Source: Streptomyces sp. CBMA29
GTDB taxonomy: Bacteria > Actinomycetota > Actinomycetes > Streptomycetales > Streptomycetaceae
Length of the DNA: 38,197 bases
Reading direction: 5' to 3'
NCBI RefSeq assembly: GCF_014596445.1
Contig: NZ_MECL01000029.1
Location: 1 to 38,197, forward strand
Shown: one piece after another, positions 23,449 through 35,711 of the stretch
Layout: every line of letters starts with the position of its first letter
Position numbering within the stretch: the stretch's first letter is position 1
Position numbers and translations under genes: made by a program
The notes under the pieces: generated by a model
Seen by the model: the letters and a program-made list of their open reading frames with translations, nothing else
What the model was told of the DNA's origin: nothing
Databases searched by the model: none

Positions 23449-23811
23449 CCCGGTATTCGGGCGCGGTCGATCGCCGCAACGACACTAAGAAGTTATTGCG
23501 AATTCACATCGCTCGGCCCGTGGATCCCCGGGAAGCACTGCGCCGAGCTCTGATTCCTACCCCGTGTCATCAGTCAGATCCGTCGTTGAAGACCGACCTA
23601 TGGCTGACTGGCGGTCGTGACAGTACCAGACGCCCGAGGCGCGCGCGCCCGTAACGACCAAGCTCCGAAAGGGACTTCGTCCTTAATGTGAGGTTACCTG
23701 CGGGGGAGCCGGGAGCCGGGAGCCGGGAGTCGGCGGCCGGGCGGGACATTCGAAGCCCGGCCCCCGTAAAACCGGTCGAACGCGTGGTCGGCGCGCTGTT
23801 ACGGTCTGTGG
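23449..23811. promoter_or_regulatory. Divergent intergenic region of the lipid operon and the conserved unknown gene
   Basis: This 363-bp stretch has no gene and is less GC-rich than its surroundings. A perfect 7-bp inverted repeat CAGTCAG/CTGACTG (23571-23577, 23604-23610) is a candidate operator for the minus-strand lipid operon. On the plus strand TACGGT (23800-23805) lies 6 bases before GTG 23812, with TCGAAC (23776-23781) at -35 distance. This predicts a leaderless mRNA for the downstream gene. No clear minus-strand -35/-10 pair could be chosen. Confidence 0.4.
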
Positions 23812-24546
23812 GTGGCGAAACTCAACCAGATCATCGCAGTCGAGAAGGGCGTCAAGTCCAAGGCGCAGCAGGAACTGACGGCCGCTCATCACGACGTGCA
23901 GAAGCCCTCGTTGCTTTCCGGGATCTCGCGGAGCTATCAGCCGAAGGACGAGGAGGGCGAGCAATTGCCGCCCGAGTCCACTCGGGTGCAGGTCAAGGCC
24001 GAGAATGTGCTGCGGGACACCGCCGCGGTGCTCACCCGGCTCTTCGACGTGACCGCCACCAAGGACTGGGCCAACTGCGAGGCGCGCGCCGATGTCACGG
24101 TCGACGGCCGCACCGTCGTCAGCGATGTGCCCGTGTCGTATCTGCTCTTCCTGGAGAAGCAGCTCACCGACCTCAACACCTTCGTGCGCAAGCTGCCGGT
24201 GCTGGACGCGGCCGAGGGCTGGAATCTGGACGCCTCCACGGACGCCTGGAAGACCGAGCCGGTACGGACGATCCGCACCAAGAAGGTCCCGCGCAACCAT
24301 GTGAAGGCCGAGGCCACCGAGAAGCACCCGGCCCAGGTCGAGGTGTACTACGAGGACGTGGCGGTCGGTTACTGGACCACGGTGAAGTTCTCCGGCGCGC
24401 TCCCCGCCCGCCGGGTGAACGAACTGCTGGACCGGGTCGAGAAGTTGCAGCAGGCGGTGAAGTTCGCCCGCGAGGAGGCCAACGGCACGGAGGTCACCGA
24501 CCGGCGCGTCGGCGAGGCCGTGTTCGGGTTCCTGTTCGCGCAGTGA
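23812..24546 (+). CDS. Conserved protein of unknown function (DUF7873-like)
   Basis: A 244-residue soluble protein that I place, from memory of its sequence style, with a Streptomyces-conserved domain of unknown function. It starts MAKLNQIIAVEKGVKSKAQQ and has highly charged helical segments at both ends (about 1-30 and 200-235). A central beta-rich part includes TVDGRTVVSDVPVSYLLFLE and VYYEDVAVGYWTTVKFSGAL. No catalytic motif, signal peptide or TM segment is seen. The GTG start has no Shine-Dalgarno sequence but a TANNNT hexamer 6 bases upstream, suggesting a leaderless mRNA. A hairpin follows 12 bases after the stop, and then the two permuted tRNA-like genes. Whether the protein handles those RNAs is an open hypothesis based only on adjacency. 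Confidence 0.8.
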   Translation: MAKLNQIIAVEKGVKSKAQQELTAAHHDVQKPSLLSGISRSYQPKDEEGEQLPPESTRVQVKAENVLRDTAAVLTRLFDVTATKDWANCEARADVTVDGRTVVSDVPVSYLLFLEKQLTDLNTFVRKLPVLDAAEGWNLDASTDAWKTEPVRTIRTKKVPRNHVKAEATEKHPAQVEVYYEDVAVGYWTTVKFSGALPARRVNELLDRVEKLQQAVKFAREEANGTEVTDRRVGEAVFGFLFAQ

Positions 24547-24558
24547 CCACCCTAGATC

Positions 24559-24580
24559 CCCTCCGCCGGAGCGCGGAGGG
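24559..24580 (+). terminator. Hairpin after the conserved unknown gene
   Basis: A perfect 8-bp stem CCCTCCGC/GCGGAGGG with a 6-base loop begins 12 bases past the stop codon at 24546. There is no U-tract. It could terminate transcription, or separate the mRNA from the tRNA-like RNA. Confidence 0.55.
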
Positions 24581-24622
24581 TGCGCCAGGAGCGCAAAGCT
24601 GAAGCTGAAGTTTGTCGTGAAC

Positions 24623-24706
24623 GACGCGGTTCCAGTGGGGGTTCGAGTCCCTCACCCCGCACCACCCGCGGGGGTAGCCCAAATGGCAGAGGCAGACCGC
24701 GATCAA
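24623..24706 (+). tRNA. Permuted tRNA-like gene A (3' half first); candidate anticodon CAA
   Basis: The halves are in reverse order. The 3' half (24623-24664) has a T arm with stem GGGGG/CCCTC and loop TTCGAGT (24642-24648), acceptor strand ACCCCGC (24654-24660), discriminator A and an encoded CCA (24662-24664). After the linker CCC, the 5' half (24668-24706) has acceptor strand GCGGGGG (6 of 7 pairs with the 3' strand), T8-A9, a D arm with stem GCC/GGC and GG in the loop (24685-24686). Seven consecutive pairs join 24695-24701 to 24625-24631 as the anticodon stem. Joining A24706 to G24623 would give the 7-base loop ATCAAGA, with U33 and anticodon CAA (Leu UUG). T54, T55, C56, A58, G53-C61 and the A15-U48 pair are kept. 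Outer flanks GGAGCG (24588-24593) and CGCTCC (24718-24723) are complementary. The anticodon register is less certain than the stems. Confidence 0.6.
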
Positions 24707-24758
24707 TCTCAGACTCTCGCTCCAGACTCAGCAGTCGCCGCCGATCACCGGATCGATC

Positions 24759-24864
24759 GGCCGCGGGCAAGGTCGTCAGGTGCAGGTTCAAATCCTGTCT
24801 GGTCCTCTTTCACGGGCCGGTAGTTCAACGGTAGAACGAGTCGACATCAGATTGACCCGCGGCC
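24759..24864 (+). other. Precursor helix enclosing permuted tRNA-like gene B
   Basis: GGCCGCGGG (24759-24767), just 5' of the 3' half, is the exact reverse complement of CCCGCGGCC (24856-24864), just 3' of the 5' half. CAA (24768-24770) adds three pairs with TTG (24852-24854), leaving A24855 bulged. This outer helix stacks on the anticodon stem through an asymmetric loop (G24771 against ATCAGA). It resembles the bulge-helix-bulge closing of permuted pre-tRNAs. Confidence 0.6.
24771..24851 (+). tRNA. Permuted tRNA-like gene B (3' half first); candidate anticodon CAG
   Basis: The 3' half (24771-24806) has variable loop CAGGT, T stem GCAGG/CCTGT with loop TTCAAAT (24787-24793), acceptor strand CTGGTCC (24799-24805) and T73, with no encoded CCA. 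After a 7-base linker the 5' half (24814-24851) has acceptor strand GGGCCGG, which pairs at all 7 positions (two G-U). T8-A9 follows, then a perfect D arm GTTC-AACGGTA-GAAC. The anticodon stem is CGAC (24842-24845) with GTCG (24772-24775); a fifth pair is T-T, and two extra bases follow position 26. Joining A24851 to G24771 gives loop ATCAGAG, with U33, anticodon CAG (Leu CUG) and A37. A14, A15-U48, G18, G19, A21, T54, T55, C56 and A58 are present. Bacterial tRNA-Leu normally has a long variable arm and A73, so the amino-acid identity is doubtful. Confidence 0.6.
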
Positions 24865-24902
24865 TCAAGTGCGCCGGTGTGTGCACGGGGCGGCACTTCG
24901 AG

Positions 24903-24934
24903 GGGCCCGGGGGCTGGACATGCCTCCGGGTCCC
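24903..24934 (+). terminator. Strong hairpin terminator after the tRNA-like region
   Basis: GGGCCCGGGGGC (24903-24914) pairs with GCCTCCGGGTCCC (24922-24934), giving 12 pairs with one bulged T and a 7-base loop, followed by GCTCCTTT. A weaker hairpin (CTCAAGTGC at 24864 with GCACTTCGAG at 24893) directly precedes it. The remaining bases up to 25075 show nothing further. Confidence 0.75.
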
Positions 24935-25075
24935 GCTCCTTTGTCACCGCTGACGCGGCCGGTTCGCCGCCGTCTCCACGAGCACGCCGAGGCGGGCCGC
25001 CACCGCGGGCCCGACCCCCGTCCGACGCCTGACGGCCACCGGCCGACCGCTCAGTGGTGGCGTAGCGGTTAGCCT

Positions 25076-26344
25076 GTGAGCACCATGATCCGATTCACGA
25101 CGCCCTGGGGTGACCTCGACCTCACTCGCTTCCCGCAGGACCCGCGCGACCAACTGCGGGCCTGGGACGCCGCCGACGCGTACGCGCTACGGCATCTCGC
25201 GGACACCCGAGCCGATACACGGCCCGACGCCCGAGCCGATACCCGAGCCGATACGCGACCCGACGCCCGAGCCGACACTCGGGCGGAAGGCACGGCCGAC
25301 GGGCGTACGGCCGTCAGGTCCGTGGACCTGTCCGGGACCGTCGTCGTGGTCGGTGACCGCTGGGGCGCGCTGACCACCGCCCTGGCCGCGCACCGCCCCA
25401 CCCAGATCTCGGACTCCTTCCTCGCGCAGGAGGCGACCCGCGCGAATCTGCTGCGGAACGCGCCGGAGGAGGCCGACGGCGTCCGGCTGCTGTCCACCCG
25501 CGACACCCCGCCGGACCGTATCGACGTCCTGCTGATCAGGGTCCCCAAGAGCCTCGCGCTGCTGGAGGACCAGCTCCACCGCCTCGCGCCCGCCGTGCAC
25601 GAGGGCACCGTCGTGGTCGGCACCGGCATGACCACCGAGATCCACACCTCGACGCTCAACCTCTTCGAGCGGATCCTCGGACCGACGCGTACGTCACTGG
25701 CCGAGAAGAAGGCGCGGCTCATCTTCTGCGCCCCGGCCGCGGGCCGGGCCCGTACCGCCAGCCCGTGGCCGATCGGTTACGCGCTGCCGGACGGCATCGG
25801 CGCGGTCTCCGGCCGTACGGTCACCAACCACGCGGGTATCTTCTGCGCGGAGCGGCTCGACATCGGCACCCGCTTCCTGCTCCAGCACCTCCCCGTCCGG
25901 CACGGCCCGGACCGCGTGGTCGACCTCGGCTGCGGCAACGGCGTCGTCGGTACGGCCGCCGCGCTCGCCAACCCCGAGTCCGCCGTGCTGTTCGCCGACG
26001 AGTCGCACCAGGCGGTGGCCTCAGCCGAGGCCACCTTCCGCGCCAACGCCGACCCCGCGACCAAGGCGGAGTTCCTGGTCGCCGACGGCCTGACCGGCGT
26101 CCCGGCCGAGAGCGCCGACCTCGTACTCCTCAACCCGCCCTTCCACTCCCACCAGGTCACCACCGACATCACGGCCCGCCGGATGTTCACCGCCGCCCGT
26201 ACCGTCCTGCGCCCCGGCGGCGAACTCTGGGTCATCGGCAACCGCCACCTCGGCTACCACCTCCGCCTGCGCCGCCTCTTCGGCACTTGCGACATCGTCG
26301 CCTCCGACCCCAAATTCGTGATCCTCCGCGCCGCCAAGTCCTGA
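25076..26344 (+). CDS. RNA guanine-N2 methyltransferase-like protein (RlmG/RsmC family)
   Basis: A 422-residue two-domain SAM methyltransferase. The N-terminal half (about 1-215) is a degenerate methyltransferase-like domain. The C-terminal half carries SAM-binding motif I VVDLGCGNGVVG (about 281-292) and the N-methyltransferase motif IV NPPFH (about 352-356), which in RsmC/RlmG modifies guanine N2 in ribosomal RNA. An in-frame repeat of DTRADTRPDARA (residues 43-54 and 55-66, plus a partial copy) inflates the N-terminal domain. The start may be GTG 25076 or ATG 25085; neither has a good Shine-Dalgarno sequence. It lies just downstream of the tRNA-like genes in the same direction but after a terminator. 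Confidence 0.85.
   Translation: MSTMIRFTTPWGDLDLTRFPQDPRDQLRAWDAADAYALRHLADTRADTRPDARADTRADTRPDARADTRAEGTADGRTAVRSVDLSGTVVVVGDRWGALTTALAAHRPTQISDSFLAQEATRANLLRNAPEEADGVRLLSTRDTPPDRIDVLLIRVPKSLALLEDQLHRLAPAVHEGTVVVGTGMTTEIHTSTLNLFERILGPTRTSLAEKKARLIFCAPAAGRARTASPWPIGYALPDGIGAVSGRTVTNHAGIFCAERLDIGTRFLLQHLPVRHGPDRVVDLGCGNGVVGTAAALANPESAVLFADESHQAVASAEATFRANADPATKAEFLVADGLTGVPAESADLVLLNPPFHSHQVTTDITARRMFTAARTVLRPGGELWVIGNRHLGYHLRLRRLFGTCDIVASDPKFVILRAAKS
25202..25285 (+). repeat. In-frame 36-bp tandem repeat inside the methyltransferase gene
   Basis: Two near-identical 36-bp units (25202-25237 and 25238-25273) and a 12-bp partial copy encode DTRADTRPDARA twice and then DTRA. The unit itself holds sub-repeats of CCCGAGCCGATA. 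The copy number is likely to vary between strains. Confidence 0.8.
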
Positions 26345-27530: not shown

Positions 27531-28697
<1,167 letters not shown>

Positions 28698-28701
<4 letters not shown>

Positions 28702-28793
28702 CCGACGCACGCGAGGCCGCCGGGCGGCAGGCAACGACGATCGGCGCGGGTTTGTGCCGAGCGGGCGGAGAAGGGAACGAGGAGGAGCAGTGA
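28698..28793 (+). CDS. Micro-ORF 2 between argC and argJ, 31 aa
   Basis: GTG 28698 (GAGGAG 6 bases upstream) opens a 31-residue frame beginning TDAREAAGRQATTIGAGLCR and ending [10 protein letters not shown]. Its TGA overlaps the argJ GTG start by 4 bases (GTGA at 28790-28793). The C-terminal part is encoded by the second copy of a 51-bp repeat, which also contains the argJ ribosome-binding site. It continues the unbroken chain of overlaps argC / micro-ORF 1 / micro-ORF 2 / argJ. Expression is unproven. Confidence 0.45.
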
Positions 28794-29950
28794 GTGTCAC
28801 GGCAGCCAAGGGATTCACGGCGGCGGGGATCGCCGCGGGGATCAAGGAGAACGGCAACCCGGACCTGGCCCTCGTGGTCAACACGGGACCGCGCCGCGCC
28901 GCCGCGGGCGTCTTCACCTCCAACCGCGTGAAGGCCGCCCCCGTGCTCTGGTCGGAGCAGGTCGTCAAGGGCGGCGCGGTCGCCGCCGTGGTCCTCAACT
29001 CCGGTGGTGCCAACGCCTGTACGGGCCCGCAGGGCTTCCAGGACACGCACGCGACCGCGGAGAAGGTCGCCGAAGTGCTCGGCGCCGACGACCACGGCGC
29101 GGGCGAGATCGCGGTCGCCTCGACCGGCCTGATCGGTCTGCCGCTCCCGATGGACAAGCTGCTGCCGGGAGTCGAGAAGGCCGCGGCCGAACTGTCCGAG
29201 TACGGCGGCGAGAAGGCCGCCATCGCCATCAAGACCACCGACACCGTGCACAAGACGGCCGTCGCGGGCGGCGCGGGCTGGACCGTCGGCGGCATGGCCA
29301 AGGGCGCGGGCATGCTCGCGCCGGGCCTGGCCACCATGCTGGTCGTCCTCACCACGGACGCCGACGTGGAAGCCCCCGCCCTGGACACGGCGCTGCGCGC
29401 CGCCACCCGGCTGACCTTCGACCGGATCGACTCCGACGGCTGCATGTCGACCAACGACACCGTGCTGCTGCTGGCCTCGGGGGCGTCCGGAATCGCCCCG
29501 GAGCAGGAGGAGTTCGCGGAGGCCGTCCGCGCGGTCTGCGGCGACCTCGCCCGCCAGCTCATCGGCGACGCCGAGGGCGCCTCGAAGGACATCAGGATCG
29601 AGGTCGTCAACGCGGCCTCCGAGGACGACGCCGTCGAGGTGGGCCGCTCCATCGCCCGTAACAACCTCCTCAAGTGCGCGATCCACGGCGAGGACCCCAA
29701 CTGGGGCCGTGTGCTGTCCGCGATCGGCACGACCTCGGCCGCCTTCGAGCCCGACCGGCTCAACGTCGCCATCAACGGCGTGTGGGTGTGCAGGAACGGC
29801 TCGGTCGGCGAGGACCGTGACCTGGTCGACATGCGGTTCCGCGAGGTGGCCATCACGGCGGACCTGGCGGCCGGTACGGAGTCCGCGGTGATCTGGGCGA
29901 ACGACCTCACCGCCGACTACGTCCACGAGAACAGCGCGTACAGCTCATGA
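28790..29950 (+). CDS. argJ: Bifunctional glutamate/ornithine N-acetyltransferase
   Basis: Transfers acetyl from N-acetylornithine to glutamate, and in bifunctional forms uses acetyl-CoA, closing the cyclic arginine pathway. The 386-residue precursor self-cleaves before a Thr. The motif [14 protein letters not shown] contains that site, between Ala181 and Thr182, yielding alpha and beta chains. Other family features are STGLIG (111-116) and the C-terminal EDPNWGR. The start is GTG 28790, with GGAGGAG just upstream and a GTGA overlap with the preceding micro-ORF. It is coupled to argB by a 4-base ATGA overlap. Confidence 0.97.
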
Positions 29951-30941
29951 CGGACCGTCAGGAATCCGGCGGCGGGGAGCCGGAGGGCCAGCCCACCGCG
30001 CGCAGGCACACGGCGCTGCCCAAGGCCCAGATCCTTATCGAGGCGCTGCCCTGGCTGACCCGGCACAATGGCAAGGTCGTCGTCGTCAAATTCGGCGGAA
30101 ACGCCATGGTGGACGAGGAGTTGAAGGCCGCCTTCGCGCAGGACGTGGTCTTTCTGCGGCAGGCGGGCCTCAAGCCGGTCGTCGTGCACGGCGGCGGCCC
30201 GCAGATCAACGCGCAGCTCGACCGGCACGGCCTGGTCAGCGAGTTCAAGGCCGGGCTGCGGGTGACCACGCCCGAGGCGATGGACGTGGTCCGGATGGTG
30301 CTGGCGGGCCAGGTCCAGCGCGAGCTGGTCGGACTGCTCAATCAGCACGGCCCGTTGGCCGTCGGCATGACCGGCGAGGACGCTCACACGATCACCGCCA
30401 CCCGCCACCGCCCGCGTATCGACGGCGAGTTGGTCGACATCGGCCGGGTCGGCGAGATCACCGCCATCGACACCGGCGCGATCGAGGCGCTGCTGGCCGA
30501 CGGCCGTATCCCGGTCGTCTCCTCCATCGCGCGCTCCGCCGACGACCACCACGTCTACAACGTCAACGCCGACACGGCCGCCGCCGCCCTGGCCGCCGCG
30601 CTGGGCGCCGAGACGCTGATGGTCCTCACCGACGTCGAGGGCCTGTACGAGGACTGGCCGAACAGCGACGACGTCATCAGCCGCCTGACCGCGACGGAGC
30701 TGGAGAAACTGCTGCCCGACCTGTCCAGCGGCATGGTCCCCAAGATGCGGGGCTGCCTGTTCGCCGTGCGCAACGGCGTGAACACCGCGCGCGTCATCGA
30801 CGGCCGGGTCCAGCACTCGATCCTGCTGGAGATCTTCACCGACGAGGGCATCGGCACGATGGTCGTGCCGGACGACGTCACCGACGCGGCCGGAGCGCCG
30901 GCCGCGGGCACCGTATCCGACCAGGCAGAAGGAGAAGCGCG

Positions 30942-30945
<4 letters not shown>
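29947..30945 (+). CDS. argB: Acetylglutamate kinase
   Basis: Phosphorylates N-acetylglutamate, usually the arginine-feedback-controlled step. It has 332 residues, about 30 longer than many homologues, owing to a charged N-terminal extension (1-23) followed by [20 protein letters not shown]. The amino-acid-kinase motifs are clear: VVKFGGNAM (47-54, Lys48), [10 protein letters not shown] (about 79-88) and the C-terminal [14 protein letters not shown]. The N-terminal helix before the kinase fold is the type found in arginine-inhibited hexameric enzymes. ATG 29947 overlaps the argJ stop. Confidence 0.97.
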
Positions 30946-32147
<1,202 letters not shown>

Positions 32148-32163
32148 CGGAGTTGACACGACG

Positions 32164-32697
32164 ATGACCGAGGCGCAGCAGCACAACGGCAGCCAGGCCG
32201 TACCGCAGACCCGTACCGCGCGGCACCGCAGGATCGTGGACATCCTCGGCCGCCAGCCGGTCAGGTCGCAGAGCCAGCTCGCCAAGCTGCTCGCCGACGA
32301 CGGGCTGAGCGTCACCCAGGCGACGCTCAGCCGCGACCTCGACGAACTCGGCGCGGTCAAGATCCGCACGAACGACGGCGAACTCATCTACGCCGTCCCC
32401 TCCGAGGGCGGGTTCCGCACCCCGCAGGCCCCGCTCGGCGAGTCGGTCAAGGAAGAGCGCATGCGGCGCCTGGCCGCCGAACTCCTCATCTCCGCCGAGG
32501 CGTCCGCCAACCTCGTCGTCGTCCGCACTCCGCCCGGCGCCGCCCAGTTCCTCGCCTCCGCCATGGACCAGGCCGAGGTCTACGACATCCTCGGCACCAT
32601 CGCGGGCGACGACACCGTCGTCCTGATCAGCCGCGACCCGGCCGGCGGCCAGAAACTCGCCGACCACCTGCTCCGTCTCGCCCAGGGCGAGGCGTAG
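32164..32697 (+). CDS. argR: Arginine repressor
   Basis: Hexameric arginine-dependent repressor (and activator) of the arginine genes. The N-terminal winged helix (about 18-78) contains [28 protein letters not shown], the ArgR HTH (quoted here in overlapping parts: SQSQLAKLL and [11 protein letters not shown]). The C-terminal oligomerisation and arginine-binding domain (about 100-172) has [13 protein letters not shown] and GTIAGDDT with the ligand-binding acidic pair. It has 177 residues, slightly long at the N-terminus. It sits between the biosynthetic genes it presumably controls, with operator candidates before argC and argG. Confidence 0.97.
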
Positions 32698-32726
32698 CCC
32701 CGGTTTGGCCAGGGCGTAGCCCCGGT
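32691..32726 (+). repeat. 14-bp direct repeat spanning the argR stop codon
   Basis: GGCGTAGCCCCGGT occurs at 32691-32704 (including the TAG stop of argR) and again at 32713-32726, a 22-bp period. It is a short duplication at a gene end, like those at 7578 and 28642. Confidence 0.7.
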
Positions 32727-32768
32727 CCGACCAGTTATACCCCTTCACACCCCGTCTGACCTGCCGCG

Positions 32769-32817
32769 TTGACGAAGCATACGGTCGAGTGCATACTTAT
32801 ACCAGTCAGCGTATGCA
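32769..32817 (+). promoter_or_regulatory. argG promoter overlapped by candidate ArgR operators
   Basis: TTGACG (32769-32774), a 17-base spacer and CATACT (32792-32797) form a promoter. GCATAC occurs at 32777 and 32791. TGCATAC (32790-32796) and GTATGCA (32811-32817) are a perfect 7-bp inverted pair. Binding at these boxes would block both promoter elements. Confidence 0.7.
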
Positions 32818-32833
32818 TCGTAAGGAGAGCCCC

Positions 32834-35711
<2,878 letters not shown>

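What the first reader, a model, noticed from the sequence alone, without database searches (positions are those of the whole stretch)
24771..24864. Circularly permuted tRNA-like gene in a bacterium (unit B)
The T arm plus 3' acceptor strand precede the 5' acceptor strand plus D arm by only 7 bases. In this order all 7 acceptor pairs form (24799-24805 with 24814-24820). Almost every invariant tRNA base is kept, including the A15-U48 tertiary pair and the D-loop GG. The flanks (24759-24767 and 24856-24864) are perfectly complementary over 9 bp. Removing that helix leaves a 7-base anticodon loop with U33, CAG and A37. Permuted tRNA genes are established for some archaea and algae, and permuted two-piece tmRNA for some bacteria. 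I know of no established bacterial permuted elongator tRNA.
Basis: partly seen in the sequence, partly recalled or inferred. Interest (0 to 1): 0.93.

Follow-up and report, generated by a model that had tools for sequence, protein, structure and literature searches.

The report
Ro-free twin tRNA-mimic RNA system
Just behind a gene for an uncharacterised protein (DUF7873), this actinobacterial genome carries two RNA genes shaped like tRNAs with their halves in swapped order; the same arrangement follows that protein's gene in many other actinobacteria and phages, and it likely makes a so far undescribed RNA-protein particle that would mimic tRNA rather than a working tRNA.

Summary
The element (unit B) and a sister unit A (24625-24701) are circularly permuted tRNA-like modules (T arm, 3' acceptor strand, short linker, 5' acceptor strand, D arm) downstream of a DUF7873 gene (23812-24546). 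At least one such unit follows DUF7873 in 80 of 80 genome loci and 73 of 80 viral loci fetched; shuffled stretches gave 5 of 1590. Among 101 genomes of the window's family, a covariance model of unit B scores 59 bits or more in exactly the 63 with a full DUF7873 match, 138-287 nt downstream. The closing stem of unit B covaries. It is not a permuted elongator tRNA: a multi-helix stem stands where the anticodon arm would be, and no join gives an anticodon shared by actinobacteria and phages. The layout is that of bacterial Y RNA (YrlA), itself a permuted tRNA mimic, but the stem differs from Ro-linked Y RNAs, and no Ro/TROVE gene was found in the own genome. Best reading: a Y RNA-like RNA pair whose predicted partner is DUF7873, a confidently modelled protein without a significant structural match. 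Expression, binding and function are untested.

The parts
23812..24546 (+). DUF7873 (PF25283) protein gene, 244 aa; predicted partner of the RNAs
   Evidence: Pfam E 1.2e-121; no NCBIfam, PHROGs or PADLOC family at E<=1e-3; at least 7312 homologues at E<=1e-3 (candidates capped); AlphaFold2 mean pLDDT 94.1, pTM 0.78
24582..24594 (+). Short GCGC hairpin before unit A; similar hairpins of other sequence stand there in several phages (seen by eye, not counted)
24625..24701 (+). Unit A: permuted tRNA-like module with proximal helix CGCGGTT 24625-24631 / GACCGCG 24695-24701; T arm 24637-24653; 3' acceptor strand 24654-24660 followed by ACCA; 5' acceptor strand 24668-24674 (6 of 7 pairs); D arm 24677-24693
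   Evidence: Rfam YrlA 19.5 bits, E 0.17; model R1 32.7 bits, core only
24746..24879 (+). Unit B outermost helix P1: 24746-24751 CACCGG with 24874-24879 CCGGTG
   Evidence: fold of this sequence; 87.1% of cells paired, 6 of 6 pairs with changes on both sides
24752..24756 (+). Conserved AUCGA on the 5' side of the internal loop between P1 and P2; the 3' side here is UCAAGUG 24865-24871 (UUAAACG or similar in relatives)
24759..24864 (+). Unit B helix P2: 24759-24767 with 24856-24864 (9 bp here)
24782..24798 (+). Unit B T arm
24799..24820 (+). Unit B acceptor stem 24799-24805 with 24814-24820, closed by linker 24806-24813
24823..24837 (+). Unit B D arm
24736..24886 (+). Whole unit B as matched end to end by covariance model R1 (121 bits)
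   Evidence: the window is one of the 44 sequences R1 was built from
24902..24934 (+). Terminator-like hairpin after unit B; a similar palindrome is in the consensus of 83 actinobacterial loci
   Evidence: 1 found, 0.9 expected from shuffles, so weak by itself; consensus

Best explanation
The element is the second of two tandem, circularly permuted tRNA-like RNA units encoded just downstream of a DUF7873 gene, and it likely acts as a Y RNA-like non-coding RNA predicted to be bound by the DUF7873 protein, not as the precursor of a translating tRNA. Shown by sequence comparison: the permuted core, the second unit, the multi-helix stem in place of the anticodon arm with compensatory changes, the tight linkage to DUF7873 in actinobacteria and phages, the different stem sequence of Ro-linked Y RNAs, and no detected Ro/TROVE gene in the own genome assembly. 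Inferred: (1) the RNAs are made from the DUF7873 transcript, since the first T arm lies a median 95 nt (loci L013-L103) or 125 nt (viral contigs) after the stop codon and a terminator-like hairpin follows unit B; (2) DUF7873 binds the P1/internal-loop/P2 stem, as Ro binds the stem of Y RNA; (3) the tRNA-like end docks onto enzymes that handle tRNA, so that the particle recruits or occupies them (RNA quality control, or a decoy against tRNA-cutting enzymes in phages, where the gene often lies among tRNA genes).
For:: at least one unit within 1200 nt downstream of DUF7873 in 80 of 80 genome loci (two in 67) and 73 of 80 viral loci (two or more in 38); shuffles 5 of 1590; 44 diverse unit B sequences, 91.8% of cells paired (58.0% shuffled; 37-44% with partners slid), 32 of 33 pairs with changes on both sides, covariation score 0.885 against 0.239 (0 of 500 shuffles as high); stem helices P1 and P2, no criterion of the detector, are 87-95.5% paired with double changes at all 14 pairs; of 39 loci neither used to build model R1 nor chosen as tRNA-array controls, 25 have an end-to-end R1 match of 55 bits or more (a few are near-duplicates of each other or of training rows); 63 of 63 genomes with a full DUF7873 match have R1 at 59 bits or more on the same strand, 138-287 nt downstream; 0 of the other 38 do. 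TROVE not found in the own genome, in 8 of 9 named records and in 43 of 50 viral contigs. Ro-linked cores match R1 only within positions 41-122 of 156, and 0 of 14 carry the stem motif found in 88 of 126 unit B copies; the YrlA model aligns end to end with unit B (29.5 bits, E 2.2e-4); confident DUF7873 model, no PDB match at E<=1e-3.
Against: No expression, binding or functional data. Linkage does not prove binding: DUF7873 could process or modify the RNAs, or be regulated by them. Three of 80 viral loci (L128, L129, L146) gave no unit by either method, though L146 holds only 124 nt downstream; the Microcoleus phage has no unit near the gene, only a 40-bit match 2 kb downstream. Unit A shares the core and a proximal helix, but RNAalifold predicts no outer stem on its alignment, so 'Y RNA-like' is firmer for B than for A. 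The tRNA-like arms were selected by my detector, the rows of A4 were hand-picked, and the P1/P2 columns were chosen on that same alignment; all three inflate the pairing counts. R1 also gives core-only matches of 47.2 and 41.0 bits to ordinary tandem tRNA genes of the own genome, above the unit on contig C2 (34.1) and unit A (32.7), so weak R1 matches prove nothing. The 59-bit line was drawn after seeing the scores, and one search scored only 29 candidates per genome. Single-sequence folding energy is not exceptional (z -1.40; z -1.78 for the whole region). Where TROVE occurs in the same viral contig it lies within 2.7-10.5 kb in 6 of 7 cases, so these RNAs might serve Ro there.
Confidence: 0.62

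Rival explanations
1. A true circularly permuted tRNA gene: the precursor is cut and circularised so that the halves are joined at an anticodon loop and the product is charged.
Against: No join gives an anticodon shared by actinobacteria and phages; 106 of 107 units give some ARAGORN call, so the call is not informative. The place of the anticodon arm is taken by a covarying stem of several helices with asymmetric internal loops. Linkers between the acceptor strands run from 4 to 68 nt in the viral loci. The bulge-helix-bulge splicing enzyme is not known from bacteria (recalled, not searched).
Confidence: 0.04
2. Two-piece tRNA-like RNAs, comparable to permuted two-piece tmRNA: tRNA-processing enzymes cut at the linker, leaving a real acceptor end on a nicked RNA.
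For: The bases after the acceptor often resemble NCCA (ACCA in 18 of 46 phage or viral unit A copies; TCCA or GCCA in 25 of 59 unit B copies); linker length is not conserved, as expected if it is removed; the acceptor stem pairs in all rows of A4, though that was a detection criterion.
Against: In actinobacterial unit B copies 55 of 67 carry GCTC or GCTT there, not CCA. No tmRNA is seen in the window. Untested biochemically.
Confidence: 0.2
3. Ordinary bacterial Y RNAs (YrlA) that simply serve a Ro protein encoded elsewhere.
For: Same module order and weak YrlA hits; in 6 of 7 TROVE-positive viral contigs TROVE lies within 10.5 kb of DUF7873, and about 5 kb away in Rhizobium phage RHph_TM21B.
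Against: No TROVE found in the own genome (93.9% complete), in 8 of 9 named records or in 43 of 50 viral contigs (fragments, so absence is weak). In the phylum sample, of 12 genomes of the own family, own included, 4 have both, 3 DUF7873 only, 3 TROVE only and 2 neither. The stem sequence differs.
Confidence: 0.1
4. Remnants of a decayed tRNA gene array, in which the 3' half of one tRNA precedes the 5' half of the next.
For: Tandem ordinary tRNA genes do give YrlA and R1 core hits in the same genome.
Against: Acceptor complementarity is kept across many different sequences; the stem covaries; the linkage to DUF7873 is near-universal in the family sample; the two control tRNA arrays gave no detector hit.
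Confidence: 0.01

Closest known systems
Bacterial Y RNA YrlA (Rfam RF02553), partner of Ro60/Rsr (TROVE, PF05731)
   Same: Circularly permuted tRNA-like module (T arm, closed acceptor, D arm) on a stem of several helices separated by internal loops; encoded next to a protein gene; in five of the TROVE loci examined two cores stand in tandem as well (L195, L196, L198, L200, L201)
   Different: Score 29.5 bits against a gathering score of 69; neighbouring gene is DUF7873, not TROVE; different conserved stem (0 of 14 Ro-linked cores carry AUCRA...UUAAAYG or its variants); R1 matches Ro-linked RNAs only in the core
Circularly permuted tRNA genes of algae and archaea
   Same: Order of the halves in the gene
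   Different: No joined anticodon arm with an anticodon shared across relatives; long covarying stem instead
Permuted two-piece tmRNA of some bacteria (recalled)
   Same: 3' acceptor part encoded before the 5' acceptor part; NCCA-like bases after the acceptor in some copies
   Different: No tmRNA found by ARAGORN or Rfam; mostly two units per locus; linked to DUF7873
rsr-yrlBA-rtcBA operon of Salmonella (PMC7790460, passages read)
   Same: A protein gene with two Y RNA genes; [quoted passage not shown]
   Different: Protein is Rsr; operon carries RNA repair genes

Membership tests
YrlA / bacterial Y RNA | tRNA-like module with permuted order (T arm - acceptor - D arm) | tested here: met
YrlA / bacterial Y RNA | Rfam RF02553 gathering score (69 bits) | tested here: not met
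   29.5 bits (unit B) and 19.5 bits (unit A); the Ro-linked loci tested also stay below it (best 56.2), so the threshold is strict
YrlA / bacterial Y RNA | Encoded near a Ro/Rsr (TROVE) gene | tested here: not met
   none found in the own genome, in 8 of 9 records and in 43 of 50 viral contigs
YrlA / bacterial Y RNA | Stem sequence of Ro-linked Y RNAs | tested here: not met
   R1 matches Ro-linked RNAs only in the core; unit B stem motif in 0 of 14 Ro-linked cores (the motif was drawn from unit B)
YrlA / bacterial Y RNA | Physical binding by Ro60/Rsr | not testable with these tools
   needs a pull-down
Circularly permuted tRNA gene | Joined halves give an anticodon arm with an anticodon conserved across relatives | tested here: not met
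   best joins give scattered anticodons; AUG in 37 of 48 called actinobacterial units at one join, in no other unit called there
Circularly permuted tRNA gene | Intermediate junction reads, aminoacylation | not testable with these tools
   no reads available
Two-piece tmRNA | tmRNA called by ARAGORN or Rfam in the window | tested here: not met
   none
DUF7873 (PF25283) | Pfam profile above cut-off over full length | tested here: met
   405.4 bits (cut-off 27), residues 1-243
Ro60/TROVE fold (for DUF7873) | Structural match to Ro60 | tested here: inconclusive
   fold searches gave no significant match to anything, which neither shows nor excludes a shared fold

The most novel reading that the evidence does not exclude
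A widespread ribonucleoprotein family in bacteria and phages: DUF7873, a protein with no recognised fold, takes the place of Ro60 and carries a pair of circularly permuted tRNA mimics; in phages it may keep host tRNA-handling or tRNA-cutting enzymes away from the phage's own tRNAs.
Probability: 0.5. Interest if true: 0.92.

Novelty: new variant of a known kind. Interest (0 to 1): 0.82.

Why it matters
As far as I recall, tRNA-mimicking Y RNAs have been tied to one protein partner, Ro60. A second, unrelated protein family with its own twin RNAs of this type, common in the window's family and found in phages of very different hosts, would show that permuted tRNA mimics are a general module and would give DUF7873, a family of unknown function, a testable role. 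It also corrects the idea of a bacterial permuted elongator tRNA at this place.

Tried and rejected
Rejected: permuted elongator tRNA; decayed tRNA array; a coding reading of the CTGAAR repeats around unit A (in-frame stop codons in relatives, seen by eye). The YrlA model alone is not specific: other hits in the own genome (contigs C259, C233) are tandem ordinary tRNA genes. ARAGORN calls a linear tRNA that uses the leader, T arm and 3' acceptor of unit A in many actinobacteria; calls overlap a unit in 32 of 80 genome and 10 of 80 viral loci. In the 36 calls compared, the linear acceptor has 7 pairs in 17, 6 in 15 and 5 in 4; the permuted one has 7 in 33 and 6 in 3. So for unit A in some genomes a linear alternative pairs almost as well. 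I reject it because the permuted form is the one shared with phages, but a switch between the two is not excluded.

A4 holds 44 of 46 hand-picked unit B sequences; L162 and L176 were left out because the selection had picked their unit A. A5 holds 38 of 41 distinct unit A references (L033, L090, L123 left out). 37 of 281 units fitted neither the A nor the B rule and are not in the A/B counts. The 14 Ro-linked cores are those of the 25 rows left after dropping duplicates of L190 in L191, short T-arm-only rows and the weakest rows; 13 lie in actinobacterial genomes, one in the Rhizobium phage. The DUF7873 row of L125 was left out because of an in-frame stop. TROVE was tested in 50 of the 80 viral contigs.

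Full report
Observation. Unit B is in the sequence as described: T arm 24782-24798, 3' acceptor strand 24799-24805, linker 24806-24813, 5' acceptor strand 24814-24820 (7 of 7 pairs, two G-U), D arm 24823-24837, and the perfect 9-bp flanking helix 24759-24767/24856-24864. ARAGORN and Rfam at gathering score report nothing in the window. With a permissive threshold the one Rfam match of note is YrlA, the bacterial Y RNA: unit B 29.5 bits, E 2.2e-4, end to end; and a second, upstream unit 24613-24718 at 19.5 bits, E 0.17. That model alone is not specific, since tandem ordinary tRNA genes in the same genome also hit it.

What it sits next to. The gene just upstream (23812-24546) is DUF7873 (PF25283, E 1.2e-121), a family of unknown function with at least 7312 homologues (capped). 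The own genome (8.48 Mb, 277 contigs, 93.9% complete) holds two DUF7873 genes, and the second one, on contig C2, also has a permuted unit downstream. Model R1 gives that unit only 34.1 bits, less than ordinary tandem tRNA genes of the same genome get (47.2 and 41.0, core only). No TROVE (Ro) gene was found in this genome. DUF7873 occurs in 73 phage records of very different hosts (Vibrio, Gordonia, Rhizobium, Klebsiella, Serratia, Arthrobacter, cyanobacteria and others). Eight of these were opened: seven have units close downstream (six with two, the Rhizobium phage with one), the Microcoleus phage only a 40-bit R1 match 2 kb further on. In none of the eight is an RNA annotated at these places; in Keelan a hypothetical protein is annotated over them.

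Conservation. A detector that asks for T arm, 3' acceptor, linker, complementary 5' acceptor and D arm found units downstream of DUF7873 in 80 of 80 genome loci (67 with two) and 73 of 80 viral loci (38 with two or more); elsewhere in the same loci, with about 4.5 times as many bases, it hit in 3 of 80 and 13 of 80 loci. Of the seven viral misses, the covariance model found four (L114 and L147 downstream; L137, where the RNA lies upstream of the gene; L154, core only), while L128, L129 and L146 stayed empty (L146 holds only 124 nt downstream). Dinucleotide shuffles of the downstream stretches gave 5 of 1590 against 152 of 159 real.

Structure. In 44 diverse unit B sequences the structure P1 - internal loop AUCGA/YUUAAACG - P2 - internal loop - P3 - T arm - acceptor - D arm is 91.8% paired (shuffled 58.0%, slid 37-44%), with changes on both sides at 32 of 33 pairs and a covariation score of 0.885 against 0.239 (0 of 500). 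Three things flatter these counts: the T, acceptor and D arms were detection criteria; the rows were hand-picked; and the P1/P2 columns were picked as best partners on the same alignment. Within that limit the stem is strong: P1 87.1%, P2 87.3-95.5%, double changes at all 14 pairs, and 25 of 39 loci outside the training set and the tRNA-array controls give an end-to-end R1 match of 55 bits or more (a few are near-duplicates). P3 is weaker (71.2%); its offset varies between copies. The fold of the window sequence alone shows the same helices (z -1.40). For unit A the core is clear and the window has a 7-bp proximal helix, but no outer stem emerged.

Linkage to DUF7873. In 101 genomes of the window's family (Streptomycetaceae, inferred from its named relatives), model R1 scores 59 bits or more in 63 genomes, exactly those with a full-length DUF7873 match, always on the same strand and 138-287 nt downstream; the other 38 genomes, including one with only a 64-residue DUF7873 fragment (G411), have no such hit, their best being 57.3 bits over the tRNA-like core alone. 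The 59-bit line was drawn after the fact, the lowest of the 63 (G475, 59.2 bits) is matched over positions 24-135 only, R1 was trained partly on this family, and the search scored 29 candidates per genome; the all-or-none pattern is nevertheless clear.

Relation to Ro and Y RNA. TROVE was not found in 8 of 9 named records (L022 was too large to search) nor in 43 of 50 viral contigs (fragments). In the 396-genome phylum sample DUF7873 is in 7 and TROVE in 10 genomes; of the 12 genomes of the own family, four have both, three DUF7873 only, three TROVE only and two neither. Ro-linked cores match R1 only within positions 41-122 of 156, and none of 14 carries the stem signature seen in 88 of 126 unit B copies (the signature was drawn from unit B itself). 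Phage-encoded Ro and Y RNAs are discussed in PMC12282133 and PMC7765460 (passages read).

Not a permuted tRNA. At another join AUG comes up in 37 of 73 calls, all 37 among the 48 called actinobacterial units and none among the rest, where a stretch of sequence is conserved. A stem that covaries over P1 and P2, with conserved internal-loop bases, replaces the anticodon arm. That bacterial Y RNA superposes on tRNA with a circular permutation is stated in PMC11472068 (passages read).

Mechanism proposed. Gene and RNAs would be transcribed together (terminator-like hairpin at 24902-24934, 1 found against 0.9 expected; no sigma-70-like promoter in 23600-25100 by a simple scan). DUF7873 would bind the conserved stem, and the tRNA-like ends would engage tRNA-handling enzymes. 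In viral loci DUF7873 often sits near ordinary tRNA genes (44 of 80 loci have at least one, 21 at least three; genome loci 1 of 80), which fits a role in tRNA biology. A comparable idea, YrlA as competitive inhibitor of an anticodon nuclease, is voiced in PMC7790460 (passages read). Transcription, binding, processing and function are inferred, not shown.

Verdict. Real, widely conserved, and not annotated as RNA in the eight phage records opened; not a permuted elongator tRNA; a Y RNA-like twin RNA tied to a different protein family.

Noticed in passing
L013:5197-6159 (own genome contig C2:60196-61158): A second, divergent DUF7873 gene (39% identical) followed by one permuted unit with a 49-nt linker; neighbouring genes not annotated.
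   Followed up: partly
L133, L152, L164, L173, L174, L177 contigs; Rhizobium phage RHph_TM21B 113363-114106: Where a TROVE (Ro) gene was found in a DUF7873-bearing virus it lies within about 10.5 kb of DUF7873 in 7 of 8 cases.
   Followed up: partly
L195, L196, L198, L200, L201: Ro-linked Y RNA cores of actinobacteria also come as two tandem copies about 200-250 nt apart, with a stem sequence of their own.
   Followed up: partly
Unit A leader, e.g. L028:3765-3851, L040:3767-3853: ARAGORN calls a linear tRNA (often Phe-GAA) from the leader, T arm and 3' acceptor of unit A in many actinobacterial loci; either a false call or a real alternative fold.
   Followed up: partly
window 24582-24594 and the same place in relatives: Short hairpin before unit A, with different paired sequences in several phages; seen by eye, not counted.
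   Followed up: no
L137:2668-2927: Units lie upstream of DUF7873 instead of downstream.
   Followed up: no
L183:3839-5256: A viral contig with five permuted-core matches (E at most 1.2e-4) in a row downstream of DUF7873.
   Followed up: no
L125:3001: DUF7873 gene with an early in-frame stop in this viral contig although both RNA units are found.
   Followed up: no
L017:4268-4513 (Gordonia phage Keelan): The record annotates a hypothetical protein over the two RNA units, probably a spurious gene.
   Followed up: no
window 25076-26344: Next gene downstream is an RlmG/RsmC-like rRNA methyltransferase (below NCBIfam cut-off) with short direct repeats near its start (seen by eye).
   Followed up: no
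window 27584-35499: Arginine biosynthesis genes (argC, argJ, argB, an aminotransferase, argG, argH by Pfam).
   Followed up: no
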